Origin: Pleurocapsa sp. PCC 7319
Lineage (GTDB): Bacteria > Cyanobacteriota > Cyanobacteriia > Cyanobacteriales > Xenococcaceae
Length of the DNA: 64,000 bases
Reading direction: 5' to 3'
Assembly (NCBI RefSeq): GCF_000332195.1
Contig: NZ_KB235922.1
Coordinates: forward strand, 3,941,322-4,005,321
The notes under the pieces were generated by a model. It was not told the origin of the DNA. It was given only the letters and a program-made list of their open reading frames with translations, and ran no database searches. Numbering within the stretch: position 1 is the first letter of the stretch; each line of letters starts with the position of its first letter. The translations under genes were made by a program, and so were the position numbers. Shown here piece by piece: positions 28,460-46,181 of this stretch.

Positions 28460-30657
28460 TTAAAAACGGAAAGTAGTCCGAATAGTTCCGACATAAAGAG
28501 TATCATTATCCTCAATATGACCTGGATTAGTCACGAAGAAAAACCCAGGAGTAATTGATATGTGATCGTTAACTGTATAGCGATAGAAAAATTCAAAGTG
28601 CAATGAAGTTGCTTCATCTTCTCGTCCGAACTGTTCAGCAGTTCCTTCGGGTCGAAGATTGCCATTATTAGGATCTCCTACATCTGGGTCTTCTGTTAAA
28701 AAAGCTCTAGGATCGTTATCGGTAACGGAAACCGCATCTTCATTGTTAATTACCTGCTCAGAAAAAGGTACAGACTGACCTGCGGTTGTTGGTCCAGCAT
28801 CAACTAATTTAGGTGGCATACCAAAAATAAATCCAAACAAATCACCTTCACGGTTAAAGGGATCGGAAAAACCTAAGGAAAATTGGTAAGATAGCGTATT
28901 CGCATAAGGCTTTTCTCCGGCCACAGCTGGATTACCAACGAGTGGATTTCCATCTCCTCCAAAATCAGGAATTTCATTCAGAAAGTTGGAGAAAGTGTAA
29001 GCTGCTGAAGCACCAAAATTTAAGTTTTCTCGTAAATTCCATTGAAAAGTTCCTCCCACAGCATTAATTTGTGCGGGTAGATCGCCAATATCCACTCCCT
29101 CGCCCCAAAAAGCATTTAAATCACTATCAGGAAGTCTTCCCCCAGACCATAAACCATTGGTTTCGGCATTAACACTACCAGTAAAAGTTCCTAAGCTACC
29201 ATCTTTAGAGTAAGCATTGACATAGGTTAATCCTGTAACGATATCTTCTGTAGGCTGGAGCAATAATTGCACTCCCAAAGCACTATGATCGGCAGCAAAA
29301 AACCCTTGATCAGGATTGGCAGTATCTCTTGTACCATAGGCAAATTGTAAGCGCACAGGGTCGGCAATTAACCAATCAAATCCCACTCCCGCATCCATAG
29401 CTCCACCTATTCTAAAAATAGGATTGAGTTGTCCAAAGCGGGATACTGCCCCCCGTCCAATGTCAAAGTAGGGGGAATTGGAGGTTAAAACATTACTTAA
29501 AGCAAAACCAAAAGTTGACCCGTAGAATGCCACTCGGTCATTAAAAGCAGGAATACGATATTCCAAAATGTCTAATATAACTTGATTTTCTAGTCCTGCT
29601 TGATAACTTAAGCGAGGTGCATAGGTATTAAATGATTCGGTGCATAGGTATTAAATGATTCAGGATTGGTAAACCCACCATTATCGAAGTTACCAGTGGT
29701 TAAAAACATTCGCAAACGGTCTTGACCTGTAAATGAACTTTGTAGTCCCAAACGTGCCAAGTAAGCAAAAACCGTCTCAGTTTCAGGATCTTCAGCGGTG
29801 GATATGGCGTTTCCATCTTCTCGAATGCCACAGTTAACTAAATTATTAGTGCGACCATTTTGCAAATTAAGGTCTAAAATGGAGCATCCCCCAGGAGGTC
29901 CGCCACCAAAAGCATCAGCCAGAGCAAAGATAACTTCTCCATTTAAAATGGTGGTCGTGGAAAATTGATGGTCTTCTAGCCATGTTATGCGACCATCTAA
30001 ATTATCAACTCGTCCGGCGATCGCTTGCAGTTCAGTTTTAAATTCTTGAGTTAGGCGATTAATCGTTGGTAAATCTTCTTGACTGATAGTTTCTTGTTCA
30101 GCGATTGAACGTTCAATTTGTTCTAAACAAGAGTTTAAACCTGCGGCAAATTCATAACGACTAAGGGTCTGGTTGCCGCGAAACGTTTGCTCGGGAAAAC
30201 CACTGATACAGCCATATCTATCTACCAGGGAGCGTAATGCTTCGTATGCCCAGTCATTTGGTGCAACATCTTGCATTCGAGACACATTAGTAGTCTGAAC
30301 CAGATGAGTCTCAGGTATGATTGTTTCTATTCCTAGAGAGTTAGCATTTGTCTGATAATCTTTTAATACTGGAACATTTGGAGTATCTGAGGAAGTGATT
30401 GGTCCTGGATTTTTTGCTGGCAAGGGCAAACTCCAACTAGTTTTTGCTGCCAACCCAAAATTACGAAATCTATCAAAGTTGAAGTTGGATAAATGGAGGT
30501 TTTGATGCCAGTTATAACGAGGATTTTTATCTTCTATGCTTGCCTTGGCATCAAGCCAATTAAACTGATGCTTATAGGTCTCTGCGTTAGCTACAGATGA
30601 TAATAACAAAAATATAGGTATTCCAGATAACCCAGATAGTATATGTTTAGTCTTCAT
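28460..30657 (-). pseudogene. SLH-OprB porin copy 2, split by a 23-bp tandem duplication
   Basis: The 5' part (29608-30657, 349 codons) carries the signal peptide, SLH domain, coiled coil and first barrel strands, and runs into a false end (YAPNHLIPMHLA). The 3' part (28460-29566) continues the same barrel to TIRTTFRF in another frame. The break coincides with two adjacent identical 23-base copies at 29616-29638 and 29639-29661. Removing one copy restores one open frame, reading NPESFNTYAPRLSYQAG at the join and aligning with copies 1 and 3. No other defect is seen, so the loss is recent or reversible. A sequencing or assembly error is less likely for an exact 23-base repeat but not excluded. 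Confidence 0.92.
29616..29661. repeat. 23-bp perfect tandem duplication in porin gene
   Basis: Two identical, directly adjacent 23-base units starting GGTGCATAGG. Since 23 is not a multiple of 3, one copy leaves the gene in frame and two copies break it. The other two porin genes have a single copy of the corresponding sequence. Confidence 0.95.
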
Positions 30658-30988: not shown

Positions 30989-33145
30989 TTAAAAACGGAA
31001 AGTAGTCCGAATTGTTCCGACATAAAGAGTATCATTATCCTCAATATGACCTGGATTAGTTACGAAGAAAAACCCTGGAGTAATTGATATGTGATCGTTA
31101 ACTGTATAGCGATAGAAAAATTCAAAGTGCAAAGAAGTGGCTTCATCTTCTCGTCCAAATTGTTCCGAGCTTCCTGGTGGTCTGGGACTACCATCACTTC
31201 CCGTGCGCGGATCGGAACGAGGATCGTTATCAGTAACAACCTCCTCTTCCTCGTTATTTATCACCTGTTCAAAAAAAGGCACGTCTTGACCTCGTGTTAT
31301 TGGTCCCGCATCAACTAACTTAGGCGGCATTCCAAAAAGGAAAGCGAATAAATCTCCTTCACGACCAAAAGGATCGCTATAACCGAGGGAAAAAAGATAA
31401 GTTAGGGTATTGCCAAAGGGTTCTTGTCCGGCTACTCCTTGGGTATCTCCTGCAAATTCAGGAATTTCCCTAAGGAAGTCAGTAAAAGTATAAGCTGCCC
31501 AACTACCAAAGGTTAGGTTATCTACTATACGCCATTGCAAGCTTCCACCAATGGCATTAGTTTGAGCAGGAAAATCTCCCAGTTCTAAACCAAAGCCAGG
31601 GTTAGCGGAGGGTTCTCCCTGTGCATTTGGTTGATCTGGAAGCCTTCCTCCAGACCATAAACCTGTAGTTTCAGCATTGACACTACCTGTGAAAGTGCCT
31701 AGAATTCCATCGCTATTATAGGAATTAATATAGTTTATTCCCGCCACAATATTTTCAGTAGGTTGCACTAAGAACTGCACCCCTAAAGCACTGTGGTCTG
31801 AACCGAAAAATCCTTGCTCTGAGTTGCCACTATTTCTGGTTCCATAAGCAAACTGTAAGCGTACTGGATCGGTAATTAACCAATCAAAACCGACTCCAGC
31901 ATCCATTGCTCCACCAATCCTAAAAATAGGATTTAGTTGCCCAAAACGGGAAACTGCTCCTCGCCCAATATCAAAGTAAGGAGAATTGGCAGTCAGAACA
32001 TTACTCAAGGCAAATCCAAAGGTAGAAGCGTAAAAAACAACCTTGTCATCAAAAGCAGGAAAGCGATATTCCAAAATATCTAACACTACTTGATTTTCTA
32101 AACCTGCCTGATATCCCAAACGAGCCATATAGGTGTTCAAGGATTGGATATTGGTAAAACCACCATCATCAAAGTTACCTGTGGTTAAAAACATTCGCAG
32201 GCGGTCTTGACCTGTAAAAGAACTTTGCAATCCCAAGCGAGCTAAGTAAGCAAATACTGTATTGGTTTCCGGATCTCGTGGGTCTGAACAGTCAACTACG
32301 TCTTGACTGAAAACATTTTCTGATGATTCCTCTGAGATGAATGTACATCCTCCAGGAGGTCCGCCACCAAAGGAATCAGCTAGAGCAAAGACAACTTCTC
32401 CATTAAAAATGGTGGTTGTGGAAAATTGATTATCTTCCAGCCATCCTAAACGACTGTCTAGATTATCAACTCGTCCGGCGATCGCTTGCAATTCTGTCTC
32501 AAATTCTTGAGTTAGTCTATTAATTGTTTGTAAATCTTCTTGACTGACAGTTTCTTGGCTGGCGATTAAACGTTCAATTTGTTGTAAACAAGAGTTTAAT
32601 CCGGCGGCAAATTGATAACGACTAAGGGACTGGTTCCCGCGAAAAGTTTGATCGGGAAAACCGCTAATACAGCTATATCTGTTTACCAAGGAGCGTAATG
32701 CCTCGTATGCCCAATCATTTGGCGCAACGTCTCGCATTTGAGACACATTAGTAGTCTGAACTAAATAAGTTTCAGGGATGATTGTCTCTTCGCCTAAAGA
32801 GCCAGCATGAGGTTGGTAATCATTTAAAACTGGTGAAGTTAGATGATCCGAAGGATTTATTGCACCTGAAGTTTTGGTTGCCAAGGGCGAACTAAAACTG
32901 GTTTTCGATGCTAACTCAAAGTTCTCAAATTTATCAAAATGAAAGTCTGATAAATCGCTGCTTTGTTGCCAGTTAGAATGAGAATTCTGATTTTCGGCGA
33001 TTGAGCTAGACCCATCACTAAAGGCAATCTCCTTGGAATCGAGCCAATGAAAATGATGCCCATTGAACTCTGCTTGAGCTATAGAGGTCGATAGGAAAAA
33101 TATAGATAGACCAGAAAACCCAGATAATATCAGCTTAGCTTTCAT
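30989..33145 (-). CDS. SLH-OprB outer membrane porin, copy 3
   Basis: 718 residues with the same order as copy 1: signal peptide, N-terminal variable segment, SLH domain (DVAPNDWAYEALRSLVNRY), coiled coil, OprB barrel and TIRTTFRF end. It differs most from its neighbours in the region before the SLH domain and in barrel loops rich in Asn, Asp and Gly. Its upstream region (33146-33379) is more diverged than those of copies 1 and 2, suggesting copies 1 and 2 split most recently. Transcribed first in the array direction. Confidence 0.95.
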   Translation of the reverse strand: MKAKLILSGFSGLSIFFLSTSIAQAEFNGHHFHWLDSKEIAFSDGSSSIAENQNSHSNWQQSSDLSDFHFDKFENFELASKTSFSSPLATKTSGAINPSDHLTSPVLNDYQPHAGSLGEETIIPETYLVQTTNVSQMRDVAPNDWAYEALRSLVNRYSCISGFPDQTFRGNQSLSRYQFAAGLNSCLQQIERLIASQETVSQEDLQTINRLTQEFETELQAIAGRVDNLDSRLGWLEDNQFSTTTIFNGEVVFALADSFGGGPPGGCTFISEESSENVFSQDVVDCSDPRDPETNTVFAYLARLGLQSSFTGQDRLRMFLTTGNFDDGGFTNIQSLNTYMARLGYQAGLENQVVLDILEYRFPAFDDKVVFYASTFGFALSNVLTANSPYFDIGRGAVSRFGQLNPIFRIGGAMDAGVGFDWLITDPVRLQFAYGTRNSGNSEQGFFGSDHSALGVQFLVQPTENIVAGINYINSYNSDGILGTFTGSVNAETTGLWSGGRLPDQPNAQGEPSANPGFGLELGDFPAQTNAIGGSLQWRIVDNLTFGSWAAYTFTDFLREIPEFAGDTQGVAGQEPFGNTLTYLFSLGYSDPFGREGDLFAFLFGMPPKLVDAGPITRGQDVPFFEQVINNEEEEVVTDNDPRSDPRTGSDGSPRPPGSSEQFGREDEATSLHFEFFYRYTVNDHISITPGFFFVTNPGHIEDNDTLYVGTIRTTFRF

Positions 33146-33379: not shown

Positions 33380-34657
33380 TTAATTACAATCTTCTCCTAA
33401 CAGTAAAAATTCACATCCTGGGGAAGGTTCATCCCTGAGCATATTTTTTAAGGAGAAACTTTTGTACAAGTCTTCAACAACATCTTCCTTTTCAGCCAAG
33501 TCGACTCTACCCGTAAGGTCTCTACTGGCAGCAACATCTAGCACACCGTTATTACTATTAGTGGCAAATACAGAAGTCATGGCTGCTTCAATAAAAGTTT
33601 TACTGGGAGCATCTCGATTGAATAGAACCTTAATATCCAAAGGATTCCACATTGTCAGAAAATTATTGGCATTTTGACCACTACTAAACTGCGTATGCAA
33701 AATAGGAGGATCGTAAGTGGTTGCCGAAGATACCACTTGCTCAATATCCTCTGATTCCAGTCCTAGATTATCAGTTTCAGTTTGGTCAACAGAACAATAT
33801 TGTTGAACTAATTGCCCTTTATCTGCTGAACCTCGACCATGAACACCAACAACAAAGCCATTGCCGTCAAATACCGGTCCTCCACTCATTCCTGGGCGAG
33901 TTAGATCGATATAAAATAAGCTATAACCGTTTTCTCCTTGACTTGTGTCGATTGTTCTCGTCATAGGAGCCCAGGCAAGACGTCTTTGCCTTCGAGCAAC
34001 TTTGCCTCGACACTTACCAGTCTTAAGATCCTTTTCTTTTTCGGGATCTGGCCAACCTGAAATATAGACTGTGTCACCGAGTTCGATATTGCTTACATCA
34101 CCAATAGAAGCAATAGGATACTCTTTATCACTGCGAAAACTAACTACAGCTAAATCAGTTCCAGCTACTCTTCCAGGCACTGTAATTGAGTAGCAACCAA
34201 ACCGGATCAAATTCTCGCTAGTAATACCTTCTTTTAGAGGACAATTTCTACCATCATCAACCTCAGTAATGGGATGAACTAGACCATCGCTAGTCCGAAT
34301 TCCATGAGGAATATTTAATTTTAAATACCTTTGTTTGAGGTTATGAGTGACAGTTAAGACGTAATAGTTATTCTTTTGCCTGCCAATAATCACACCTGAA
34401 CCAGGATTCCAAACTCCATCAGCATTACTTTTGCTAGCTAAGGGATTGTTGCGATTTTCCTCTAACTCTTTGATTAATTCAGGAGTCAGTCCAGGAGCAA
34501 TTAAAACAGTAGTTTGTCTGGCAATTGAGTTAATTTCTTCCAATGACAACTCTGGTAGAGCTTCTGATGACAATTCAGTTAAAGCTGGCGAAACTACCAT
34601 CAAACTTAGGAAGGCAGCACTAAAAGACTGAATAATAAGTTTTTTTAAAGCGAACAT
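33380..34657 (-). CDS. Exported trypsin-like serine protease
   Basis: 425 residues. Signal peptide at about 1-27 (cleavage after SPALT or nearby). The S1-type triad is visible: His105 in LTVTHNL, Asp168 in GTDLAVV and Ser258 in GMSGGPVF. A charged loop KGKxxRRQRR lies at about 215-226. After the protease core, about 120 residues (290-425) have no domain I recognise; they end in a Cys pair (GCEFLLLGEDCN). It is 130 bases downstream of the CHAT gene on the same strand, so it may be in the same transcript or have its own promoter. Substrate unknown; proteins secreted by the adjacent TPS pair or CHAT itself are candidates. Confidence 0.88.
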   Translation of the reverse strand: MFALKKLIIQSFSAAFLSLMVVSPALTELSSEALPELSLEEINSIARQTTVLIAPGLTPELIKELEENRNNPLASKSNADGVWNPGSGVIIGRQKNNYYVLTVTHNLKQRYLKLNIPHGIRTSDGLVHPITEVDDGRNCPLKEGITSENLIRFGCYSITVPGRVAGTDLAVVSFRSDKEYPIASIGDVSNIELGDTVYISGWPDPEKEKDLKTGKCRGKVARRQRRLAWAPMTRTIDTSQGENGYSLFYIDLTRPGMSGGPVFDGNGFVVGVHGRGSADKGQLVQQYCSVDQTETDNLGLESEDIEQVVSSATTYDPPILHTQFSSGQNANNFLTMWNPLDIKVLFNRDAPSKTFIEAAMTSVFATNSNNGVLDVAASRDLTGRVDLAEKEDVVEDLYKSFSLKNMLRDEPSPGCEFLLLGEDCN

Positions 34658-34787
34658 TTTTTTAAAATAAAGACATCATTGTCTCATATTGTAAGAATAT
34701 CTACAACTGTAACAACAGATAATGTTGCCAAATTTAATAATTATTAAATTTTAATCACTTATTGCAATTACTCATTGCATTGATCAC

Positions 34788-37442
34788 TTACTGCCAGTTA
34801 CCTACTAAAACATAAGGAGCCCAATAATAGGGATGAGGGGGTAATTGTTTCAGCTCTGGTAGAGGAGGGTTAGTTCGTAATGACTCAATTAGAGATAATT
34901 GGGCTTTCTGCAAAGCATCGGCTTTTTTAGCAGATGGATTTTCAAACTCACGATAAAACTGACTCATCAGTCGAGCCGTAGAAGCATCTCCAACTGACCA
35001 GAGAGAAGCTAAGGTACTGCTAGTTCCCGTGCGCACTGCTACTCCTGCTAGACCTAAAACAGCTCTTTCATCTCCTGTAGCGGTATCACAAGCACTAAGT
35101 ACTACTAATTCTGGTTTTTTACCATTGCTCGATCTTAACAGTGTACTAAGAGTCTCAATGTCAATAATATCGCGATCGCCTGTGATAATAAATGTTTGTT
35201 GAGGATCGGAGCTAAACAGTCCATGGGTGGCTAAATGAATCACGGAAAAATCAGTTTGTAGTTGTTGCTCAATACTTTTGGTGGTAAATTCTTGATTGAG
35301 TAACTGCTGGGACTTAGGAAAAATAGCCTTGATTTTGCTTAACTCTTCAGGAACATTGGCTAAAGCCGGAAAAATTTCTCCCTGAATTACTACTTGCTCA
35401 CTCAAACCTGCGGCTAGGACTTTAACCTTACTTCTGGCTGTTTGTTTGGTGTTGAGCAACTGTAAACTAGGAGCAAGGGCTACCGCATACTTTTCTAATA
35501 AGTATTGCTGACCATCGTAAAGTGCTGCCATCGGCACGTTTTGTAACTGTCCATTGAGGACAAAGACTAAGGTATGAATTTGTTGAGCTGCCAATTCTGT
35601 TTCTAACGGTTCAATCAACCAACTATAAACTTGTTTTAGCGTTGGTAATAGGGTCTGAGTATTTTCTTCTAATTCTTTGGGATTAAGGGGCGTAGTACTA
35701 AAAATATTGACCGCTGAATTGTTGACGCTTTGATTGTATAAGCTATCGTAAAGCAGATCTAAGGTTTGGTTGACCTCTTTTTCGGCAATCGGGGTGCTAA
35801 ATCTTTGTAAAGGTTTTCCGGCTACGGAGAGAATAACCTCTAAGCGATCGCTCAATACTATAGGATAAAGTACAGCAGCTTGAGAATCGAGATCATCAAT
35901 AGTCACAGCGATATCGGCTGTTTCCGAACAAGGATCTTGAAAATAATTATCTAGTTCTGCTAACTGCAAAGATTCTATAACTTGGCGAGCTAACTCTAAA
36001 TTGTTATTAGAATCGTCTTTTTGGGTATTCCTGGACTTGAGGGAGGTAAGAGATTTAAGCTTTGAGGAATTGTTATCTGTCTGTAACAGTAAATTTGCTA
36101 GCTTGAGATATACGGGTTTGACCTCTTGGCGGAAGTCAAATTGAACGACCTGATTATTCGTGTTCAAATCTGTACGCAGTGACTGGAGAGTATTAAAGGC
36201 AGAAGTATAAGCCACGATCGCTTCATCAGTTTTTCCCTGCTGTTCTAATAGTTGACCTAATTGAGATTGCCACAAATAAGTAACTTCTCTGGCATCACCG
36301 TTGATATTTTGTGCTTGCGCCAAAATTAGAGCTTGATTAGTTAAAGCGATCGCCTTGGTCAACTGACCTGTTTGACCATAATGTTGACCAAGATATCCTA
36401 AAGCATAGCTCTCAGCGATTTGATCTTCTATAGTTTGGGCTTGTTGAAGAGCCGTATTTAAAATTGATTCAACTTGGGCTCGATCTCCCAGCTTAATTAG
36501 GCTTTTCGTATAATTTATCCGAGCATAAATTCCTTGGTGGCTAGGAGCTATATTGAACCAACTGTCTTCAATAGCAGTAACTAAACTAGAACTAGTTTGA
36601 GCTAATTTAGCCGTTAACAAGTCAGAAAAGTTTGTTGCAGCTTCAGTTAAGCCAATTTGCCCGAGCCGTTGCCAAGATTTAATGCGTCGAGTGGTTTGTT
36701 CTTGCCACCAGTCTTCAATCTCAATTAACAAACTTAAATAATTAAGCTGAGCTTGAATTTGAGTGAGCGGTTTGGCAAGCTGGTCGGCAACAGTTTTTTC
36801 ATAAGCCTGAAAAGCTTTTAAATATGGTTCTAACGCCAGTTCAGGATCTTGACGGTCAATAATTTCTGTGATTTTGTTGTAATTCCAGCGATCTCGAACC
36901 TGATTGCCTAAGGCTTGTTCAATATTGCCTAATGCCAGTAATGTTGACCCCCATTCAGGAGAATTTTGGGTTGCTGTTGCGCTCAATTCCAGCATTTTTC
37001 GAGATTGAGCGAGCATTCCTCTACGTCGCAGCACATCTCCTAAACTACGTAAGCCGATACCTTGGGTGATAGTTAATTTAGAATTTGCTTTTGTTGTTAA
37101 TGATTGCCGCAATTTCTCTAGCTGTTGATCAGTACAATCAGGATGCTGGACTTCAAAAGCTTTGAGTAAAGTGTTACAAGCTTTAGGATATAGTCCCAAT
37201 TCCTGCAAAGCTTGAGCTTGATTGATGAAACTTTTACTAGCTCCCAGGCGATCGCCCTGTTCTTGAAATATAGTCGCTGCCTGCTGCCAAGTAGTTGCGG
37301 CAGAAACCAATTTACCCGTACGATAAAGCTGCTGGGCTTCTTGCGCTAATTTTAGAGCATTAGGTGCTTGAGATTGACCTGGCAGATGAAGAGCGACTGC
37401 CAAACATACTGTAATAATAAAAACTAAAATACGACGCTGCAT
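34788..37442 (-). CDS. Exported TPR-CHAT domain protein
   Basis: 884 residues. Signal peptide at about 1-25. TPR-like helical repeats run from about 30 to 430, then a CHAT (caspase HetF-associated with TPR) domain from about 570. The caspase-like catalytic pair is present: His740 in HLATHG and Cys785 in VVLSACDTATGD. The C-terminal HPYYWAPYVLVGNW is typical. In cyanobacteria CHAT proteins are often coded next to TpsB/TpsA pairs, as here; their role is not settled. It starts 36 bases after the TpsB stop, so it is probably in the same operon. Export implies a periplasmic or surface protease or binding function. Confidence 0.92.
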   Translation of the reverse strand: MQRRILVFIITVCLAVALHLPGQSQAPNALKLAQEAQQLYRTGKLVSAATTWQQAATIFQEQGDRLGASKSFINQAQALQELGLYPKACNTLLKAFEVQHPDCTDQQLEKLRQSLTTKANSKLTITQGIGLRSLGDVLRRRGMLAQSRKMLELSATATQNSPEWGSTLLALGNIEQALGNQVRDRWNYNKITEIIDRQDPELALEPYLKAFQAYEKTVADQLAKPLTQIQAQLNYLSLLIEIEDWWQEQTTRRIKSWQRLGQIGLTEAATNFSDLLTAKLAQTSSSLVTAIEDSWFNIAPSHQGIYARINYTKSLIKLGDRAQVESILNTALQQAQTIEDQIAESYALGYLGQHYGQTGQLTKAIALTNQALILAQAQNINGDAREVTYLWQSQLGQLLEQQGKTDEAIVAYTSAFNTLQSLRTDLNTNNQVVQFDFRQEVKPVYLKLANLLLQTDNNSSKLKSLTSLKSRNTQKDDSNNNLELARQVIESLQLAELDNYFQDPCSETADIAVTIDDLDSQAAVLYPIVLSDRLEVILSVAGKPLQRFSTPIAEKEVNQTLDLLYDSLYNQSVNNSAVNIFSTTPLNPKELEENTQTLLPTLKQVYSWLIEPLETELAAQQIHTLVFVLNGQLQNVPMAALYDGQQYLLEKYAVALAPSLQLLNTKQTARSKVKVLAAGLSEQVVIQGEIFPALANVPEELSKIKAIFPKSQQLLNQEFTTKSIEQQLQTDFSVIHLATHGLFSSDPQQTFIITGDRDIIDIETLSTLLRSSNGKKPELVVLSACDTATGDERAVLGLAGVAVRTGTSSTLASLWSVGDASTARLMSQFYREFENPSAKKADALQKAQLSLIESLRTNPPLPELKQLPPHPYYWAPYVLVGNWQ

Positions 37443-37478
37443 TTGCTTAACGAGATTATTTCTAAAAAATTAATTAAC

Positions 37479-39404
37479 TTAAAAAATACTAAAGTCCAAT
37501 TGCAAATAAACTCCATTTTCTTGCCAAGTGCGATCTTCTAAATCGTGATTGATTAGAGGAATGCCCCAATCAATACGAGCAGATAGTCGGTCTTCTGTAA
37601 CTAAAAGTAACCCGAATCCTGTTCCCATCAAAGTACTAAACTCTGTTGATTCACCATCAGCATTCCAACCCGTACCAAAATCGATAAAAGGACTAAACTG
37701 CAAACTGGTATTAATTTTGTCAAAGTGAGCAATAGGCAGTCGCAACTCTGCGGCAGCAGAGAAACCATTATCCGTTAGCAAAACATCTTGACGATAGCCG
37801 CGTACGGTTGTCGCACCTCCTAAACTAAACTGCTCTGTTGGGATCAAAGGATCTGCTGCTAACTGTAATTGAGAACGCAATAGGATAGTTGACCCAATCG
37901 CCGGATTACCTTCCGGTGTACTTAGTAATCTGAGATATGATAGCTGTCCTCGCCAAGCAAAAAACTGGCTGTCGGGCTCTTCTTCACTAGTTGTAGCGTT
38001 GAAGGCATTTAGACCGAAATTGAATTGAGAGCGAGCTGAAATAACCTGTTTACGATTACGCTGCAGCCATTCTTGACCAAGACTTAAAACTGAAGTGCGA
38101 ATCTCGCCATCTTCATTGGCTCCGGGAGAGAGAGCTTCTGGAACATCCAAAATTGAAGTATCGCTTTCTCGTCTAGATGCAGTTAGGCTTAAAGCTAATT
38201 CCTGGGTTACTTCGGGAGTGGCTTTTTGAAGTATAGGTTGTCTCCAGGTTAAATCATAATTACGGGAATTGATATCAATATCAGCATCGTCAAAGGGTGG
38301 TTCGACAATTTGATTTTTAGCAATTCGGAAATCAAAGCTGAGGGAACCGTCACGAGAATTCAGGGGTAAAATATAACCTCCCTCGTACTGGTTACTACCG
38401 TCAGTATTGTAATATGCAAAACGAATGCCATCGCCAATACCAAATAAATTTGCTTCTCTCAGTTCAATACCTCTTTCAAAGGTGCCAATGCTTGGATTAC
38501 GATTATTGTTTAATCTCGCTTGTAAACTAAAAGTATCTGCTCCAGTAACTGACACTGCCAAAGTATTAGTACCTGGTTCTATTCCTGCTGATAGCTCCGC
38601 ATCTAGGCTGGCGATTAAAGGGTTGAGTTGGAGTAATTGTAGTGCTTCTTGAAGTTGATTAATGTTGAGAGGGGTTTGAGTTTTCCTCTTTAAACGGTTT
38701 CTAATGTAGTCTTCGTCTAACCTTCCCTTGACAACGTTAACTTCAATTTCTGCCAAGCTCCCCTCAATTATTTGAATTTGGACTACTCCTGAATCCAGAT
38801 TTTGCTCTGGTACGTAAGCTCCCGAAGTAATGTAGCCTCTGGCAACATAAAGCTCAGTAATGGCATTAGCGGCTTGAATTAGTTGGGCAAAAGAAATTGG
38901 TTGACCTGTAAAATTAGCGATCGCCGCCTTCAATTCTGCCTGGCTAAAGACCGTATTGCCAGCAAACTGAAATTGTTCGACTGCAATAGAACCAGGAATA
39001 TCCAGAACAGATTCGGGTACTGGAGGAGCATTCAGGGATTCATTTAAGGGATTAGACCTAGGTGGTAGAGGCTGAGGTTGCCGAGGTTGAGGGCGATCAG
39101 GGGTTAACGGCTCGAAAGACTGCGCTGAAACTGAGTTGGGTTGACGAAATACAGCAAGTAAAAAGATTAAGCTATAACTAAATAGTTTGAATAGCTTCTT
39201 AATGCCTTGGGGTTGACTAGAAGCAGACAATTGCCAGCTAAGAATTAAAGTCCGATACAATAAAACTTCCCATTGACTAATCTTTAGCTGAGGACTACTT
39301 AATCGTTTATTTGGATAGTCTGCTAAATCAATTAAAGACTTATGTGATTTTACGGACAGATATAGATTAACTTTGGGTCTAGAAGAACGTGATTCAGCGA
39401 ACAT
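37479..39404 (-). CDS. Two-partner secretion transporter, TpsB (ShlB/FhaC/HecB family)
   Basis: 641 residues. After a long N-terminal segment, a signal peptide lies at about residues 70-93 (ending SVSAQS), followed by a Pro/Arg linker, POTRA domains at about 135-290 and a 16-strand barrel. The conserved barrel motif SLGGATTVRGYRQDVL is near residue 525 and the end is QLDFSIF. ATG 39402-39404 overlaps the tpsA stop by 11 bases, giving translational coupling. A TTG at 39230 would give a more usual signal peptide and is an alternative start. It exports the TpsA protein across the outer membrane. Confidence 0.95.
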   Translation of the reverse strand: MFAESRSSRPKVNLYLSVKSHKSLIDLADYPNKRLSSPQLKISQWEVLLYRTLILSWQLSASSQPQGIKKLFKLFSYSLIFLLAVFRQPNSVSAQSFEPLTPDRPQPRQPQPLPPRSNPLNESLNAPPVPESVLDIPGSIAVEQFQFAGNTVFSQAELKAAIANFTGQPISFAQLIQAANAITELYVARGYITSGAYVPEQNLDSGVVQIQIIEGSLAEIEVNVVKGRLDEDYIRNRLKRKTQTPLNINQLQEALQLLQLNPLIASLDAELSAGIEPGTNTLAVSVTGADTFSLQARLNNNRNPSIGTFERGIELREANLFGIGDGIRFAYYNTDGSNQYEGGYILPLNSRDGSLSFDFRIAKNQIVEPPFDDADIDINSRNYDLTWRQPILQKATPEVTQELALSLTASRRESDTSILDVPEALSPGANEDGEIRTSVLSLGQEWLQRNRKQVISARSQFNFGLNAFNATTSEEEPDSQFFAWRGQLSYLRLLSTPEGNPAIGSTILLRSQLQLAADPLIPTEQFSLGGATTVRGYRQDVLLTDNGFSAAAELRLPIAHFDKINTSLQFSPFIDFGTGWNADGESTEFSTLMGTGFGLLLVTEDRLSARIDWGIPLINHDLEDRTWQENGVYLQLDFSIF

Positions 39405-42400
39405 GACAGTTGGAAGAATTAAATTGAAGAGGATTAGCAGCAGTAGATTGAGCTGTCAAAACGACTACTCCCTTGGAGTTTGTGTACCAGTTACGAGCAG
39501 GTGGGGGAAATGTAACTTGACGCTCAATTTGTTTTTCTTCTGTTCCCTGATTGTGTTGCCGAGCAACTCCCAAGCTAACCAGAGATTCACTAGTTAATGG
39601 TTCATTAGGACGAGGTGGCAACCCGCCACGTCCACTGAAAGTTAGCTTACTGGTATTTGGTTGAGAGGTCACACCACAAGCTAATGCCACTGTCTCTTTG
39701 GGTTGGGTTAGCTGTATAGGTATATCTATCACTTCCAAATTAGGATTCGGATCGAGGGTATTAATATTGATTACCCCATCAAAACCTACTTGTGAGCTGG
39801 CACTAATACGACATTCTTCACAGATAAACAATCCCTGAGTATTAATATTGATTTGACCACCTTGACCCATATTGGCATCGGCAGTCAGTTGGCTAGCTTC
39901 CAACAAAGCAAAATTATTAGTTTGAAGATCGATGTTACCGCCATCAGCATTGTTACTAGCCGTAGCGGTTATTGTGCTGTTACCGCGTCCAAAAATATTG
40001 TCAGCAATTAGATTAATATTGCCACCAGTATTAGAGTTAGTTGCAGCAGAGATCGTTCCCTGACGGTTGAGAAAAATTGAATCTTCAACTTCAATCTTTA
40101 AATTACCAGCATTTCCTGTTCCGATACTCTGCACGTCAATACTTGCCCCATCCTTAACTGTCAAATTGCCCGCGCTAATCTCGATATCTCCTGAAGATCC
40201 ACTAGCTTCTTGTTCGGGGAAAGCTGGTCTACCGGAAGCTGCTACTAGACCACCTCGCTTCATGTTGTTCATTGTGGTGATACCAGTTAACTCAATGGCA
40301 TCAGTAGCCTTAATTGTCAAATCTCCCCCGTCTCCAGAACCTATAGTTGTAGCTGCAATTTCTGAACCATCTCTAACCAATAAATTACCGGTCAAAATTT
40401 CTACATTTCCAGCCGCACCACTGGTAAAGGAACTAGAACTAATCCCACTAGCAAATCTGGGATCGTCAAAAGTACCTGTGATTTCGAGAGTATCTGCAAC
40501 TTCAACTGCAATATTGCCACCATCTCCGCCGCCACCAAAGTTCAGACCACCGCGAATAAATCCTCCCGTATTGCTACTAATAAAAGCATCATCGATGGTT
40601 AAATTTTCGGTTTTAAGGTTGATATTACCTCCTTTGCCGGTACCGATGCTGGTACCAGAGTAAATTCCGGTAAATAATAGTGCTTCTTGAGGAGTATCCT
40701 TTAAATTGACCAGTTCGGCAGCATTTAGATTAATATTACCGCCACTCGCATCACCAAAAGTAGCATTAATAATTGTTGCTCCATCTCGGAGCATCAACCT
40801 CTCAGTATCAATCAGAATATCACCCGCCTGAGCAGAATCTGTGCTGTCTAATCCTGGACTAATTTGTAAGGCAGAGCCTACTATTTCTATATTTTGGGCA
40901 TTAACTTCTAAATCTCCACCTCTACCGTTGGTAAAAATTGGGCTGAAAATAATTCCTCCTTCAGTCAGACTCAGAGAATTAGTATCGATTTTCAGATTAC
41001 CCGATGTCCCATTGAGGGCTGTCCCAATGAATATCCCTGTCCCCCTAGTACCTGGTTCTAGGGTGCCATCTAAAGCATTGGCTTGAAAGGTCTGTTGAAA
41101 TTCCTCAAATCCAGTTCCAGTTATGTTTAATGATTCGGCGATTTCAAGAGTAATATCTCCTCCTTTACCTGACCCAAAAGTAGTCGTGGTGATAAAAGAG
41201 CGATCGCTGATATTTAAAGAATGAGTAGAGATTTTAATTTCACCTCCATCTCCGGTACCAAAGTTATCACTGACAATTTGACCGCCACTATTTAAAGTTA
41301 ATGAATCGGCTACCTGCAACTCAATTGTTCCCCCTGCTCCCTCTTGAACTGCTGCGGTAATGCCACCATTGGTATTGATCTTAAGTAAATCAGCTTTAAT
41401 ATCTAAGTTCCCTGCACTTCCCGTACCATCATTACGGACTGTTACTTGCCCCCGATCCATCACTTGCAACTGTGGGGTATTAATGGTGATACTCCCAGAG
41501 TCACCACTGGGTACGTCAGGCAAGCCGAATAATTCTCTCACTGGGGGATCGAGAATATTAGCCGAAGCAGTAATTAAGCTAGGGTTAATTGAACCAGGAA
41601 AAGTTCCTTTCACTTCAATAGATTCCGAGGCGTTGATAGTGATATTGCCTGCATTACCTATTGCTGTAGCGGAAGCATCGACTCTAGCACCATCGTGAAT
41701 TACTAGTTTAGGAGTGTTAATTACGACATTACCAGCATTTCCAAGACTACCACTGCCTGCCGTGATTTGACTGGGAGACAAAACCACTGAATTGGCTCCA
41801 ATTAATTCTACTGATTCTGTAGCATCAACCTGAATATTCCCTCCGGAGCCTGTTCCCATCATGCTTCCTGTTACCGAAGAAATATTGGCACCATCAAGAG
41901 CTGTAAATTTTGGGGTAAAGACTGTTACATTTCCAGCATTGCCACTCCCAAAAGTTTGCACAGAAATTGCACTAAAAAGACCAGGATTAATCTCAGAAAA
42001 CCCATCAAATCTAATTAATTCACTGGCATCGACGTTGACGTTTCCTCCAATAGCGCTACTAGAGGTGGTGGAGATAATACTTGCTCCTTCCTCAATCACT
42101 AGCTGCGGTGTGGTAATGTTAACGTTCCCTCCTTTAGCTGTACCCAAAGCTTCAGTATATATACCACTGGCAACTTCACCTTCTGGTTCTGCGCCAACGA
42201 TGGTCAGGGATTCCGCCGCATCAACACTAATGTTCCCCACTGTTCGATCAGCTAAATTTTGCAATATTAATGCCGAACCATCTCGCAGAGAAACTTGTTT
42301 ACCCGATAGATTTAGAGAACCATTATTATCACCACTAGCATCAACCAAAGCTTTTTGCGCTAAGTTGATATTGCTAAAACTTGATACATTTCCATAATCA

Positions 42401-43284
42401 AAAGCCCAACTTTCAGAGTTGAAATCAAGTCCGACCATACCTAAGTTGATACTACCAAGCTCAATTTTGCCTGACTCTGCTGTTAAAGTCCCCCCTGTCA
42501 AAGATAGGTTATTACCAATTAAGGCTAAAGTCCGACCTGAATTGACCTTTAAGCCTCCCACATTGCCTCTGGTAAACGGGGAGAAAACAGGAGTTGCCAG
42601 ACTCAGGTTATGTCCTACCCCCTGAACATTGATTGCCCCCGAATTTTGTCCAAGCTGCAACCCCACAGGAACCGTAACTGTTAATAAGGGCGGATTAGTC
42701 GTATCCCTAGCACTAAATATAGTGCCATCTTCAAAAACCAAGCTGTCTGCTGTACTGCCCAGAAAAGATCCCCCAATGTCTAAGCTCGCATTAGCACCAA
42801 AGTTAATCCCCCTGGGGTTGATCAAAATTAAATTGGCGTTACCGTTAGCTCGAATCAAACCATCAATATTAGATATGGAGTTACCAGTTACGCGACTCAC
42901 TATGTTATTGATATCAATAGCATTATTAAAAAAAGCAGTATTCCCTGTTGCCACAGAAAACTCTTGGAAGCTGTGAAACAAATTTTCCCCTCTGGTTGTT
43001 CCACCTGTTATCTCAGTAACATTATCAGAGCGATTAACTTGGGTTGGAACCGTTTCATCAGATGAGATTTGAGCTGTTACTGGGGTGTTAATGTTACTGA
43101 GGAAAGCCGCAGTCAAAATTCCTCCCCAAACCAGAGAAAGAGTTGGTTCTACATTTAACTGAGCCTTACTTTTGCCACAATTTGGCTTAATTTGACAACT
43201 GGTTCTTTGACTTGATTGTTGTGATATCCCGTTAAGCTTTTGCCATACTTGATGATTTGTTTGTTTGATATTTCTAACTATCAT
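39394..43284 (-). CDS. Two-partner secretion exoprotein, TpsA (filamentous haemagglutinin-like)
   Basis: 1296 residues. An extended signal sequence ends near residue 71 (TPVTAQ). The TPS domain (about 72-230) contains NLILINPRGINFGANASLDIGGSFLGSTADS, the site recognised by TpsB. The rest is a right-handed beta helix of repeats of the form GDGGxIxVxxxxLxxxxGAxIxxxTxGxG, with no large globular insert. Near the C-terminus are Cys pairs (ICEEC, ACGV) and the SFSGRGGLPPRPNEPL-like motif seen in cyanobacterial TpsA proteins. Likely adhesin or surface fibre; no toxin domain is seen. First gene of the tpsA-tpsB-CHAT set. Confidence 0.94.
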   Translation of the reverse strand: MIVRNIKQTNHQVWQKLNGISQQSSQRTSCQIKPNCGKSKAQLNVEPTLSLVWGGILTAAFLSNINTPVTAQISSDETVPTQVNRSDNVTEITGGTTRGENLFHSFQEFSVATGNTAFFNNAIDINNIVSRVTGNSISNIDGLIRANGNANLILINPRGINFGANASLDIGGSFLGSTADSLVFEDGTIFSARDTTNPPLLTVTVPVGLQLGQNSGAINVQGVGHNLSLATPVFSPFTRGNVGGLKVNSGRTLALIGNNLSLTGGTLTAESGKIELGSINLGMVGLDFNSESWAFDYGNVSSFSNINLAQKALVDASGDNNGSLNLSGKQVSLRDGSALILQNLADRTVGNISVDAAESLTIVGAEPEGEVASGIYTEALGTAKGGNVNITTPQLVIEEGASIISTTSSSAIGGNVNVDASELIRFDGFSEINPGLFSAISVQTFGSGNAGNVTVFTPKFTALDGANISSVTGSMMGTGSGGNIQVDATESVELIGANSVVLSPSQITAGSGSLGNAGNVVINTPKLVIHDGARVDASATAIGNAGNITINASESIEVKGTFPGSINPSLITASANILDPPVRELFGLPDVPSGDSGSITINTPQLQVMDRGQVTVRNDGTGSAGNLDIKADLLKINTNGGITAAVQEGAGGTIELQVADSLTLNSGGQIVSDNFGTGDGGEIKISTHSLNISDRSFITTTTFGSGKGGDITLEIAESLNITGTGFEEFQQTFQANALDGTLEPGTRGTGIFIGTALNGTSGNLKIDTNSLSLTEGGIIFSPIFTNGRGGDLEVNAQNIEIVGSALQISPGLDSTDSAQAGDILIDTERLMLRDGATIINATFGDASGGNINLNAAELVNLKDTPQEALLFTGIYSGTSIGTGKGGNINLKTENLTIDDAFISSNTGGFIRGGLNFGGGGDGGNIAVEVADTLEITGTFDDPRFASGISSSSFTSGAAGNVEILTGNLLVRDGSEIAATTIGSGDGGDLTIKATDAIELTGITTMNNMKRGGLVAASGRPAFPEQEASGSSGDIEISAGNLTVKDGASIDVQSIGTGNAGNLKIEVEDSIFLNRQGTISAATNSNTGGNINLIADNIFGRGNSTITATASNNADGGNIDLQTNNFALLEASQLTADANMGQGGQININTQGLFICEECRISASSQVGFDGVININTLDPNPNLEVIDIPIQLTQPKETVALACGVTSQPNTSKLTFSGRGGLPPRPNEPLTSESLVSLGVARQHNQGTEEKQIERQVTFPPPARNWYTNSKGVVVLTAQSTAANPLQFNSSNCHVR

Positions 43285-43585: not shown

Positions 43586-44113
43586 ATGGACAATTCAAGT
43601 TATTTAGCAACTTTAGTAACAGTTCCTACAATAGCTCTAGTGACTGTAGGCTCCTTTTCAACTCCAGGAGAAGCCTCCGAAGCAGTTGATGTCACTTGTG
43701 TTCAACAAGCTTCTGTTCCTACAGTAGTTGCAACTTTTTCTAATCAAAAACACTCACAGGTTACTCCCATCTTGTCATTTTTGCCGCAGTATTTTTCTGC
43801 AGATGATGGTTTTCGCCACTGTCAAAAAACTGCTCAAGCATTACAGGTTTTCTACGCTCAAAATCGAATGAATTATTTGGCTAGTGACACCATTGATGAG
43901 AAGCCAGTAGTATGTGCAGTGGAAAGAAGAGGTCTAAATTGCAACAGTTACGGCAGTGAAATATTATTTTCTTTGGCCAAACCAGTTAGCCCAACTGAAT
44001 TACTATATAGCATGTTAGACAGGAATTTTAAGGGTTCTCAACCTCCCTCCTCAAGAACTGTAAGTCGCATTTATACTGACTTAAGACCTTCTTGGTGGCC
44101 ATTACCCTTTTAA
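43586..44113 (+). CDS. COP23-domain protein
   Basis: 175 residues. Signal-like N-terminus (residues 1-33). The body fits the COP23 (circadian oscillating protein of 23 kDa) family: TCVQQASVPTVVATFSNQ, then a YFSADDGFRHCQKTAQALQVFY stretch, a DEKPVVCAVERRGLNC stretch and LFSLAKP. Four cysteines at 38, 79, 110 and 119 are spaced as in the family and probably form disulfides. Function of COP23 proteins is unknown; the founding member is rhythmically expressed and membrane-associated. It is divergent from tpsA. Confidence 0.85.
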   Translation: MDNSSYLATLVTVPTIALVTVGSFSTPGEASEAVDVTCVQQASVPTVVATFSNQKHSQVTPILSFLPQYFSADDGFRHCQKTAQALQVFYAQNRMNYLASDTIDEKPVVCAVERRGLNCNSYGSEILFSLAKPVSPTELLYSMLDRNFKGSQPPSSRTVSRIYTDLRPSWWPLPF

Positions 44114-44246: not shown

Positions 44247-46181
44247 TTAGTAGCATCTGTTTTTAGCTTCTACAGCTGCATCGTAGTCTGATCTTAGCTG
44301 AATGGCTTGCTCAAAAGCATCAATGCCTGCCTCAGGGTTTAACTGTGAATCGCAAAGAGTTTTGCCTAAATAAAACCAAGTTTGTGCCTGTTTTGCTTCT
44401 GTTAGTTGTTCATTATCCAGAATTTCGGTAAATTCTTTTCTAGCTTCTTGGTAACGTTTTGCTTGGGTTAAAACAATTCCTTTCCCTATCTGGGCGGCAA
44501 AATAATTAGGAGTGTATTCTAACGCACGATTATAAGTCATCAACGCCATAGCATATTGTTTTCTCCTTCTATAGCTATTGCCTAAATAAGTTAAAGCGAT
44601 CGCGAATTCGGTGCTAACAGCTTTTTTGCCTTTAGCTGCTTCCAATTCTTCTAAAATTTGGATTGACTTTTCGATTGCGGCTACAGACTCCTCATACTTT
44701 CCTAAAGCGTTAAGAGACTCACTTTTATTAATCAAAAATATCGGTTCCTTTTTATTTAGGGAGATTGCTGTCTCAAAAGCAGTAACGGCCTCATTTTCTC
44801 TTTTAAGGTTGTGGAGCGCTTCTCCTTGACAATTCCAAGCATACAAAGCCTTCGGCTCAATGATGGTTGCGGTAGAGCAAGATTCCCGCATTTCATCGTA
44901 TTGTTTTAATCCGGCTAAAGCATAACCTCTATTTGTCCAAGCTTGAAAATAATTGCTATCAACTTTCAGCAGACGATTATATTCCAGAATCGCTGGTTCA
45001 AAATCACCTTGTTTTAATAGTTCATTTCCTTTTTGAAAAGCTGTTTTGACTGCTATCCGTTTAGACATAATATTTAAAAATATCGACAATAAACTAATTA
45101 GAGCCAGTAGTAGCAGAATTGTTCTGGGTTGAAAAAAGCTAGGTCGACTTTTAGACACAGGAACTACTGCCGTCGAGTTTTCGGGAACAATAGCAATTGC
45201 GGAGATATTGTGATTAGTTAGGTTATCCAATTCTTTTTGGACCCAACTTCGATTGAACACCGATTGATATATTCGATTGGCTACTATTAGCTTTTGTCCT
45301 TGCTTGACTAATAATCCAATATTAATTAGTTCTTGCTGCTCTTGACTGTCGTCAAGCAACACCTCTTCTTCTAAAACTCGTTGATAAAGCTTGAGTAGCT
45401 TTGACGATTCGCATTGTTGATTTTTGAGCAATCGAGATTTTATGGCTATTAGATGCTGACCACTTTCCTGATTTTCCCAATCATGAATTATCTTTGTTTT
45501 GACTAAATAATCAACTTGTTGGGCAATATGGTCTTGACTATTTGAAGATTGATTGTCGGCAATGAGTCGAAATACTCTCTGAGTTAGAACAGATTGTCCT
45601 CCAGTCCAAAAAAGAACTTTTTTAAATACTTTCTCAGAATAGGCATTTTGATCCTCTAGTTTTAATAACTTGTATTTGATTTTGAGAAACTGCTCGTGTA
45701 TTTTCTGAGAATAGTCAAGTTGATTAATCGAGTTTAAAATCTTGGGTTCCGAATTCTTGGTTATAGCTCTAGTGGTATGATTCTGGTGTTTATAGTCGGA
45801 AGCAAGATATCTCAAAAAAAAGTCTACCGTCTTTTCCTTAAGCCAACCTTTAGCGATCGCTAATTCGCCAAATTTTAGCTGGGTATGCATCTGTTCTGCC
45901 AAAATAATCTGGATTTGTTGTTCGGTTAACAACGCCGCCTGTTTGAAGTATTGACCGATAGGTTGTTGTTTTTTTTTGGCTACTAAAGTCGGCCACTGCT
46001 CGGCAAAAAAATTAGCTGTCTTCGAGTTGATACTCCCTTGAGAAGCTAGAATTTCACCGATTCGTAAATTGTCATTACTTTGGCTTTGTTGTTGTAGAGC
46101 ATGCTGGAGCTGTTTATGAGAAACAAGACCAGCCAGCTGCAGAACTGCGCCAAGGGGAATGTTATTTTCTGAGTTAGACAC
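44247..46181 (-). CDS. Membrane TPR protein with AAA-associated winged-helix segment
   Basis: 644 residues from a GTG start. Residues about 1-130 form two copies of a helical repeat (LGAVLQLAGLVSHKQLQHAL; GQYFKQAALLTEQQIQIILA) resembling the N-terminal domain of GspE-type proteins. Residues about 170-330 (KVLFWTGGQSVLTQRVFRLI ... IYQSVFNRSWVQKEL) match the segment that follows the ATPase in cyanobacterial AAA-like/WD40 signalling proteins, but no Walker motifs are present. A membrane helix lies at about 350-370, then TPR units to the end. The architecture parallels the pseudokinase-TM-TPR proteins at 19-26 kb. Function unknown. Confidence 0.8.
   Translation of the reverse strand: MSNSENNIPLGAVLQLAGLVSHKQLQHALQQQSQSNDNLRIGEILASQGSINSKTANFFAEQWPTLVAKKKQQPIGQYFKQAALLTEQQIQIILAEQMHTQLKFGELAIAKGWLKEKTVDFFLRYLASDYKHQNHTTRAITKNSEPKILNSINQLDYSQKIHEQFLKIKYKLLKLEDQNAYSEKVFKKVLFWTGGQSVLTQRVFRLIADNQSSNSQDHIAQQVDYLVKTKIIHDWENQESGQHLIAIKSRLLKNQQCESSKLLKLYQRVLEEEVLLDDSQEQQELINIGLLVKQGQKLIVANRIYQSVFNRSWVQKELDNLTNHNISAIAIVPENSTAVVPVSKSRPSFFQPRTILLLLALISLLSIFLNIMSKRIAVKTAFQKGNELLKQGDFEPAILEYNRLLKVDSNYFQAWTNRGYALAGLKQYDEMRESCSTATIIEPKALYAWNCQGEALHNLKRENEAVTAFETAISLNKKEPIFLINKSESLNALGKYEESVAAIEKSIQILEELEAAKGKKAVSTEFAIALTYLGNSYRRRKQYAMALMTYNRALEYTPNYFAAQIGKGIVLTQAKRYQEARKEFTEILDNEQLTEAKQAQTWFYLGKTLCDSQLNPEAGIDAFEQAIQLRSDYDAAVEAKNRCY

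What the first reader, a model, noticed from the sequence alone, without database searches (positions are those of the whole stretch)
33380..43284. Candidate surface system: TpsA exoprotein, TpsB transporter, exported CHAT protein and exported trypsin-like protease
Seen: four consecutive minus-strand genes, with tpsA and tpsB overlapping by 11 bases, CHAT 36 bases later and the protease 130 bases later. Every product has an export signal. Family knowledge: TPS pairs export large beta-helical proteins; CHAT is a caspase-like fold with a His/Cys pair, intact here (His740, Cys785); the S1 triad is intact too (His105, Asp168, Ser258). Inference: two exported proteases with a secreted fibre suggest proteolytic maturation or release of TpsA, or a protease cascade at the cell surface. 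CHAT-TPS proximity is known in cyanobacteria, but a function for the set, and the protease link, are not described as far as I know.
Basis: partly seen in the sequence, partly recalled or inferred. Interest (0 to 1): 0.75.

Follow-up and report, generated by a model that had tools for sequence, protein, structure and literature searches.

The report
Built-in protease for cyanobacterial surface fibres
A cyanobacterium carries a conserved gene set that exports large surface proteins and comes with its own caspase-like protease, probably to cut the fibres loose or mature them; the second, trypsin-like protease next door most likely belongs to a different gene set.

Summary
TpsA, TpsB and an exported TPR-CHAT protein form a conserved unit. 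In 21 orthologous CHAT loci, TpsB is adjacent in 18, a COP23 gene in 17, TpsA in 11 and an S1 protease in 0. The trypsin-like protease is not part of it: in 20 loci around its relatives TPS and TpsB occur in none, an OprB porin in 12, COP23 in 10. CHAT sits there in place of the Cys-G[RK]GG-Cys tail of ordinary TpsA. The island also holds a membrane protein with a c-di-GMP-binding motif. Best reading: a dedicated protease acting at TpsB on the TpsA C-terminus. Cleavage, its site and c-di-GMP control are inferred. New variant of a known kind.

The parts
39394..43284 (-). TpsA exoprotein, 1296 aa
   Evidence: Pfam TPS residues 71-325, 1.3e-61
39406..39678 (-). TpsA C-terminal module: Cys1203, GRGG at 1218-1221, Cys1293 (candidate disulfide anchor and protease target)
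   Evidence: like arrangement in 45 of 57 stand-alone TpsA ORFs over 600 aa; alignment of 39 chosen rows
37479..39404 (-). TpsB outer-membrane transporter, 641 aa
   Evidence: Pfam POTRA_2 and ShlB
34788..37442 (-). Exported TPR-CHAT protein, 884 aa; CHAT domain 600-882, His740 and Cys785
   Evidence: Pfam CHAT 2.1e-64 and TPR_12; residues
43586..44113 (+). COP23 protein, divergent from tpsA
   Evidence: Pfam COP23 2.2e-16; present in 17 of 21 orthologous CHAT loci
44247..46181 (-). Membrane protein: two MshE-type c-di-GMP-binding motif stretches, hydrophobic segment at 354, C-terminal TPRs
   Evidence: NCBIfam NF053729 65.6 bits, cut-off 38; hydropathy; present in 14 of 21 orthologous loci
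33380..34657 (-). Trypsin-like S1 protease: neighbour, judged NOT part of the unit; goes with the porin at 30989-33145
30989..33145 (-). OprB/Som iron-uptake porin, frequent neighbour of the S1 protease; not part of the unit
   Evidence: NCBIfam por_somb 421.7 bits; OprB near S1 in 12 of 20 loci

Best explanation
This is a two-partner (type Vb) secretion unit with a dedicated third partner, an exported TPR-CHAT caspase-like protease. Shown by sequence: the genes, the His/Cys pair, the conserved TpsB-CHAT-COP23 arrangement, a TPS-linked CHAT branch, and TPS-CHAT fusions. Inferred: TpsB threads TpsA to the surface while the TpsA C-terminus, which holds two Cys around a G[RK]GG motif, stays as a disulfide-looped anchor on the periplasmic side. 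CHAT, sitting in the periplasm at TpsB and using its TPRs to hold the substrate, cuts TpsA near that module and so matures or releases the fibre. In fusions CHAT is the C-terminus itself and acts in cis. The trypsin-like protease plays no part.
For: 21 CHAT orthologues: TpsB adjacent in 18, COP23 in 17. TpsB and CHAT stay paired without a local TpsA in 7 of those 18; six of the seven also keep COP23, are from one genus, and their six genomes still have 3 to 7 TPS matches elsewhere, so CHAT goes with the transporter. Host genome: 14 of 19 strong CHAT genes within 10 kb of TPS/TpsB; 0 of 20,000 random placements reach that. Of 117 genomes, all 37 with TPS (E<=1e-20) have strong CHAT (E<=1e-30), against 14 of 80 without TPS; within the class 37 of 37 against 9 of 12, p=0.012. 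Fusions in 26 of 30 loci fetched by a fusion query, one of them the query itself; His and Cys in 32 of 32 distinct fusions, and G[RK]GG within 200 aa before CHAT in 1 of 32, against the full tail in 45 of 57 stand-alone TpsA. A quick tree of 36 hand-picked CHAT domains puts all 20 linked ones in one branch with 2 unlinked. A review (PMC5422565, passages) describes disulfide C-terminal anchors in HMW1 and HxuA.
Against: No cleavage is shown anywhere. Among the 40 best POTRA_2 loci outside the host, CHAT is near only 9, and near only 7 of the 17 that have TPS. Of 17 CHAT loci that I picked along the list, TPS was found in 3 (2 fused) and TpsB in 0: many cyanobacterial CHATs have other jobs. Of 91 CHAT domains aligned, 2 unlinked ones have lost the His (one also the Cys) and 9 could not be scored at His because the matched stretch was short. 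The tail is found in TpsA with and without a neighbouring CHAT, so it may only be an anchor; its predicted structure is poor (pLDDT 53). Craspase CHATs cut at non-conserved sites (A|S, L|D, M|K; PMC11106740 abstract), so G[RK]GG need not be the site. One of nine fusions scanned keeps TPRs (L206), against the idea that TPR is needed only in trans.
Confidence: 0.45

Rival explanations
1. CHAT is an exported effector or toxin that travels with, or as part of, TpsA and acts on other cells, as the C-terminal domains of CdiA do.
For: In fusions CHAT is the last domain of a protein with a TPS domain. A review of polymorphic toxins says that C-terminal caspase-like domains may be toxins (PMC3482391, passages).
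Against: The stand-alone form has its own N-terminal hydrophobic signal and no TPS domain, and the same gene follows TpsB in 18 of 21 orthologous loci, unlike swapped toxin tips. I did not search for immunity genes.
Confidence: 0.15
2. CHAT is a quality-control or stress protease of the periplasm near TpsB that degrades stalled TpsA, not a maturase.
For: Association with TpsB outlasts loss of the local TpsA.
Against: TPS-CHAT fusions in many genomes make little sense for a general scavenger.
Confidence: 0.2
3. One reading: CHAT and the trypsin-like protease form a surface cascade acting on TpsA.
For: Adjacency and no terminator-like site in the gap, in this genome. One other locus, L158, has distant S1 genes between TpsB and TPS, without CHAT in the stretch fetched. 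I raised the odds from 0.04 to 0.05 for that locus.
Against: S1 in 0 of 21 CHAT loci; TPS and TpsB in 0 of 20 S1 loci.
Confidence: 0.05
4. CHAT is a non-proteolytic scaffold or signalling protein at the TPS machinery.
For: No activity data exist here; TPR-CHAT in Craspase also regulates its partner (abstract starts in the listing).
Against: His and Cys kept in 32 of 32 fusions and in all 25 CHATs aligned.
Confidence: 0.12

Closest known systems
Two-partner secretion (type Vb), FHA/FhaC, HMW1A/B, HxuA/B
   Same: TPS domain, POTRA_2 and ShlB transporter; two Cys near the C-terminus, recalling the HMW1/HxuA anchor (PMC5422565, passages)
   Different: A protease gene is part of the unit; [quoted passage not shown] SphB1 for FHA is a subtilisin encoded elsewhere (same passage)
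TPR-CHAT of Craspase (Csx29); HetF (recalled)
   Same: TPR plus CHAT with a His/Cys pair
   Different: Carries an export signal, no CRISPR effector, substrate expected to be an exoprotein
LapD/LapG/LapA adhesin release (recalled, from no call)
   Same: Surface adhesin, periplasmic Cys protease, membrane protein that would read c-di-GMP inside and has a domain outside
   Different: Different protease fold, different adhesin and secretion route, no GGDEF/EAL domain in the sensor by Pfam
Polymorphic toxins with caspase-like processing peptidases (PMC3482391, passages)
   Same: Caspase-like domain inside exported proteins
   Different: The word CHAT does not occur in the first 300,000 characters held; no variable toxin tip seen here

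Membership tests
Two-partner secretion (type Vb) | TPS domain at the N-terminus of the exoprotein | tested here: met
   PF05860 1.3e-61, residues 71-325
Two-partner secretion (type Vb) | TpsB with POTRA and Omp85-type barrel encoded beside it | tested here: met
   PF08479 and PF03865, 11-base overlap
Two-partner secretion (type Vb) | TpsA actually exported through this TpsB | not testable with these tools
   needs an experiment
CHAT caspase-like proteases | CHAT domain with His/Cys pair | tested here: met
   PF12770 2.1e-64; His740, Cys785
CHAT caspase-like proteases | Proteolytic activity | not testable with these tools
   no assay
HMW1/HxuA-type C-terminal disulfide anchor | Two Cys in the C-terminal tail | tested here: met
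   Cys1203 and Cys1293; like tail in 45 of 57 TpsA
HMW1/HxuA-type C-terminal disulfide anchor | Tail plugs the TpsB pore | not testable with these tools
   fold of the tail low confidence
LapD/LapG system | LapD-type c-di-GMP receptor with degenerate GGDEF/EAL (recalled) | tested here: not met
   Pfam finds only TPRs and weak overlaps in the window protein; NCBIfam finds an MshE-type c-di-GMP motif instead
LapD/LapG system | LapG-type protease (recalled) | tested here: not met
   the only protease domain found in the unit's five proteins is CHAT
   0 of 21 CHAT loci, 0 of 20 S1 loci with TPS or TpsB; distant S1 genes beside TPS/TpsB in 1 of 40 TpsB loci
CDI/polymorphic toxin | Variable toxin tip plus immunity gene | not tested
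   no immunity-gene search was run

The most novel reading that the evidence does not exclude
The whole island is an inside-out release switch: the membrane protein senses c-di-GMP in the cytoplasm, its periplasmic TPRs hold or free the CHAT protease, COP23 tunes the protease, and CHAT cuts the Cys-G[RK]GG-Cys anchor of TpsA, so that cells drop their surface fibres when c-di-GMP falls. It would be a Lap-like system built from unrelated parts, with TPS-CHAT fusions as its self-cutting form.
Probability: 0.15. Interest if true: 0.8.

Novelty: new variant of a known kind. Interest (0 to 1): 0.55.

Why it matters
This host genome alone has 38 TPS and 29 CHAT matches, and I know of no assigned job for them. 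Tying one CHAT branch to TpsB gives a direct test of what exported CHAT proteins do, would add a protease to a secretion pathway described as lacking an operon-borne one (PMC5422565, passage), and could explain how cyanobacteria shed or reshape their surface fibres.

Tried and rejected
S1 protease as member: rejected on linkage. TpsA tail fold: pLDDT 53, no fold search made. COP23 as a known protease inhibitor: model fair (pLDDT 77) but no PDB match at E<=0.001. PDB sequence search: CHAT protein 1 hit, in its TPRs; S1 none at E<=0.01. PADLOC: only weak matches. Rfam and tRNA: nothing in the window. TpsA tail against plasmids: 7 records, Nostoc 4, Calothrix 2, Tolypothrix 1. Literature: 10 searches., which ask for 'CHAT domain' with secretion terms and cyanobacteria, found 0 papers; searches list only the top of longer results (20 of 108, 25 of 7147, 10 of 289, 12 of 78). 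No listed title or abstract start links CHAT to TPS. The library lacks most subscription journals, and public databases may already show the fused architecture. Passages read: PMC5422565, PMC3482391, PMC8283722; abstract and opening of PMC11106740; other papers as listings only.

Limits: gene classes in the maps come from HMMs that I built from the window's proteins and the loci held at that time; the S1 one is broad. The 39 rows of A2 were chosen among TpsA with the tail, so its invariant columns are biased. The tree is of 36 hand-picked CHAT domains, midpoint rooted, without support values shown. Genomes are not independent events; the six TpsA losses in one genus may be one deletion. The 21-locus counts were made by eye. 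The 3 distant S1 loci and the 17 CHAT loci were picked by hand.

Full report
Four minus-strand ORFs lie at the stated coordinates with the stated overlap, gaps and catalytic residues. Only the grouping is wrong.

The trypsin-like protease is a neighbour. A search of 148 genomes of the order found it at E<=1e-30 in 33, the host included. I fetched 20 loci around it from other genomes, the 17 closest (E<=1e-99) and 3 of the more distant ones. TPS occurs in 0 of 20 and TpsB in 0 of 20; CHAT in 1 of 20 at 5.7 kb; an OprB porin in 12 of 20; COP23 in 10 of 20 (some contigs end close by, so neighbours can be missed). Genomes G135, G086, G103 and G145 hold both this protease and the CHAT orthologue, on different contigs or more than 0.7 Mb apart. 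In the window the protease lies 234 bases before an iron-uptake porin. The gap before it has no terminator-like site, so read-through in this strain is possible. Against this reading: 1 of 40 TpsB loci (L158) has a COP23 gene and two S1 genes of 27-29% identity between TpsB and TPS, and a host S1 gene of 27% identity lies 2.3 kb from a TPS gene in L002. S1 proteases can therefore land beside TPS genes, but not as a conserved part of this unit.

The real unit is larger on the other side. A search of 340 genomes with the window's CHAT protein gave 21 loci outside the host at E<=3.4e-260; 20 were fetched and one was already held. TpsB is adjacent in 18 of 21 (one truncated, L233), COP23 in 17, TpsA in 11 (one in two pieces, L239), the c-di-GMP-motif TPR protein in 14, S1 in 0. 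L235, L249 and L250 have none of the set but CHAT. TpsB and CHAT stay paired without a local TpsA in 7 of 18. Six of these seven also keep COP23 and are from one genus, perhaps one deletion; their genomes have 3 to 7 TPS matches elsewhere. CHAT therefore goes with the transporter rather than with one TpsA, which fits a host with 38 TPS and 11 POTRA_2 matches.

The link is not chance in the host genome: 14 of 19 strong CHAT genes lie within 10 kb of a TPS or TpsB gene, random mean 1.7 and maximum 8 in 20,000 placements; at 5 kb it is 9 of 19; the 10 weak CHAT matches give 3 of 10 and 0 of 10. Over 117 genomes of the phylum all 37 with TPS have strong CHAT, against 14 of 80 without. Relatedness inflates that; within the class it is 37 of 37 against 9 of 12, p=0.012. 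Linkage is patchy further out: 9 of the 40 best POTRA_2 loci have CHAT, 7 of 17 with TPS and 2 of 23 without, p=0.02. Of 17 CHAT loci picked along the list, TPS is near 3 and TpsB near none. So a branch of CHAT, not all CHAT, is tied to TPS; a quick tree of 36 hand-picked domains agrees.

Fusions. Two of the 40 TpsB loci hold one ORF with an N-terminal TPS domain and a C-terminal CHAT domain beside TpsB. A search of 291 genomes with one of them matched 117 at E<=1e-100, many by one part alone; of the 30 loci delivered, 26 carry both domains in one ORF, the query itself among them. His and Cys are present in 32 of 32 distinct fusions; among all 91 CHAT domains aligned, 2 unlinked ones have lost the His and 9 could not be scored there. 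Pfam confirms both domains in 9 of 9 fusions scanned; TPRs in 1 of 9. Stand-alone TpsA proteins mostly end in a tail with Cys, G-x-GG some 12-17 residues on, and Cys near the end: 45 of 57, some of the rest being cut by contig ends. Fusions have CHAT there instead, 1 to 5 residues from the end, and G[RK]GG within 200 aa before CHAT in 1 of 32. CHAT and the tail thus nearly exclude each other, as expected if both deal with the TpsA C-terminus.

Mechanism. In HMW1 and HxuA the C-terminus is expected to stay in the periplasm and a disulfide loop locks it in the TpsB pore (PMC5422565, passages). The cyanobacterial tail looks alike. A periplasmic CHAT would meet it there, in trans with TPRs or in cis as a fusion. 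The step from proximity to cleavage is inference. G[RK]GG as the cut site is a guess: Craspase CHATs cut non-conserved sites and seem to rely on positioning (PMC11106740, abstract and opening).

Control. The protein at 44247-46181 carries an MshE-type c-di-GMP motif (65.6 bits, cut-off 38), as do 8 of 8 relatives scanned (54 to 80 bits), then a hydrophobic segment and TPRs. If the c-di-GMP end is cytoplasmic, a single membrane pass puts the TPRs outside. That recalls LapD/LapG adhesin release (recalled, from no call); by domain content it is not that system. Binding was not tested.

Novelty. [quoted passage not shown] Ten library searches, several of them capped listings, showed no paper linking CHAT and TPS (see Tried and rejected). 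I rate it a new variant of a known kind.

Noticed in passing
window 43586-44113 and own-genome loci L017, L019, L020, L216-L218: COP23 genes sit directly before an S1 protease gene in 6 of 13 host copies, and a distinct COP23 subgroup, many members ending in WWP, sits beside TPS-CHAT units. COP23 may be a regulator or chaperone of exported proteases; four invariant Cys among 23 aligned, model without PDB match.
   Followed up: partly
L158:8606-19901: TpsB, COP23, two S1 proteases and a large TPS protein side by side, without CHAT: perhaps a variant in which S1 takes the place of CHAT.
   Followed up: partly
L172:1498-6240 (GT2 seen by Pfam); L167, L169, L170, L173-L175 have a similar long N-terminal part, not scanned: TPS-CHAT fusion with a glycosyltransferase family 2 domain in front of the TPS domain in one ORF; odd for a secreted protein, perhaps two genes in frame or a different start.
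   Followed up: no
G009:C1:1805008-1807977, G038:C1:1707367-1710339, G004:C72:32874-35879: TPS and POTRA_2 matches in open frames of the same length close together: probable TpsA-TpsB single-chain proteins.
   Followed up: no
window 28460-29566 and 29608-30657: The middle of three tandem OprB/Som porin genes is split into two ORFs: a broken copy or a sequencing error.
   Followed up: no
L005:5609-9505: Host CHAT protein of 1298 aa with a very long acidic repeat stalk and C-terminal CHAT, near a COP23 gene; groups with the fused CHATs.
   Followed up: no
L069:4660-16883 (host): Fragments of a TPS, a CHAT and a TpsB gene, apparently a decayed unit.
   Followed up: no
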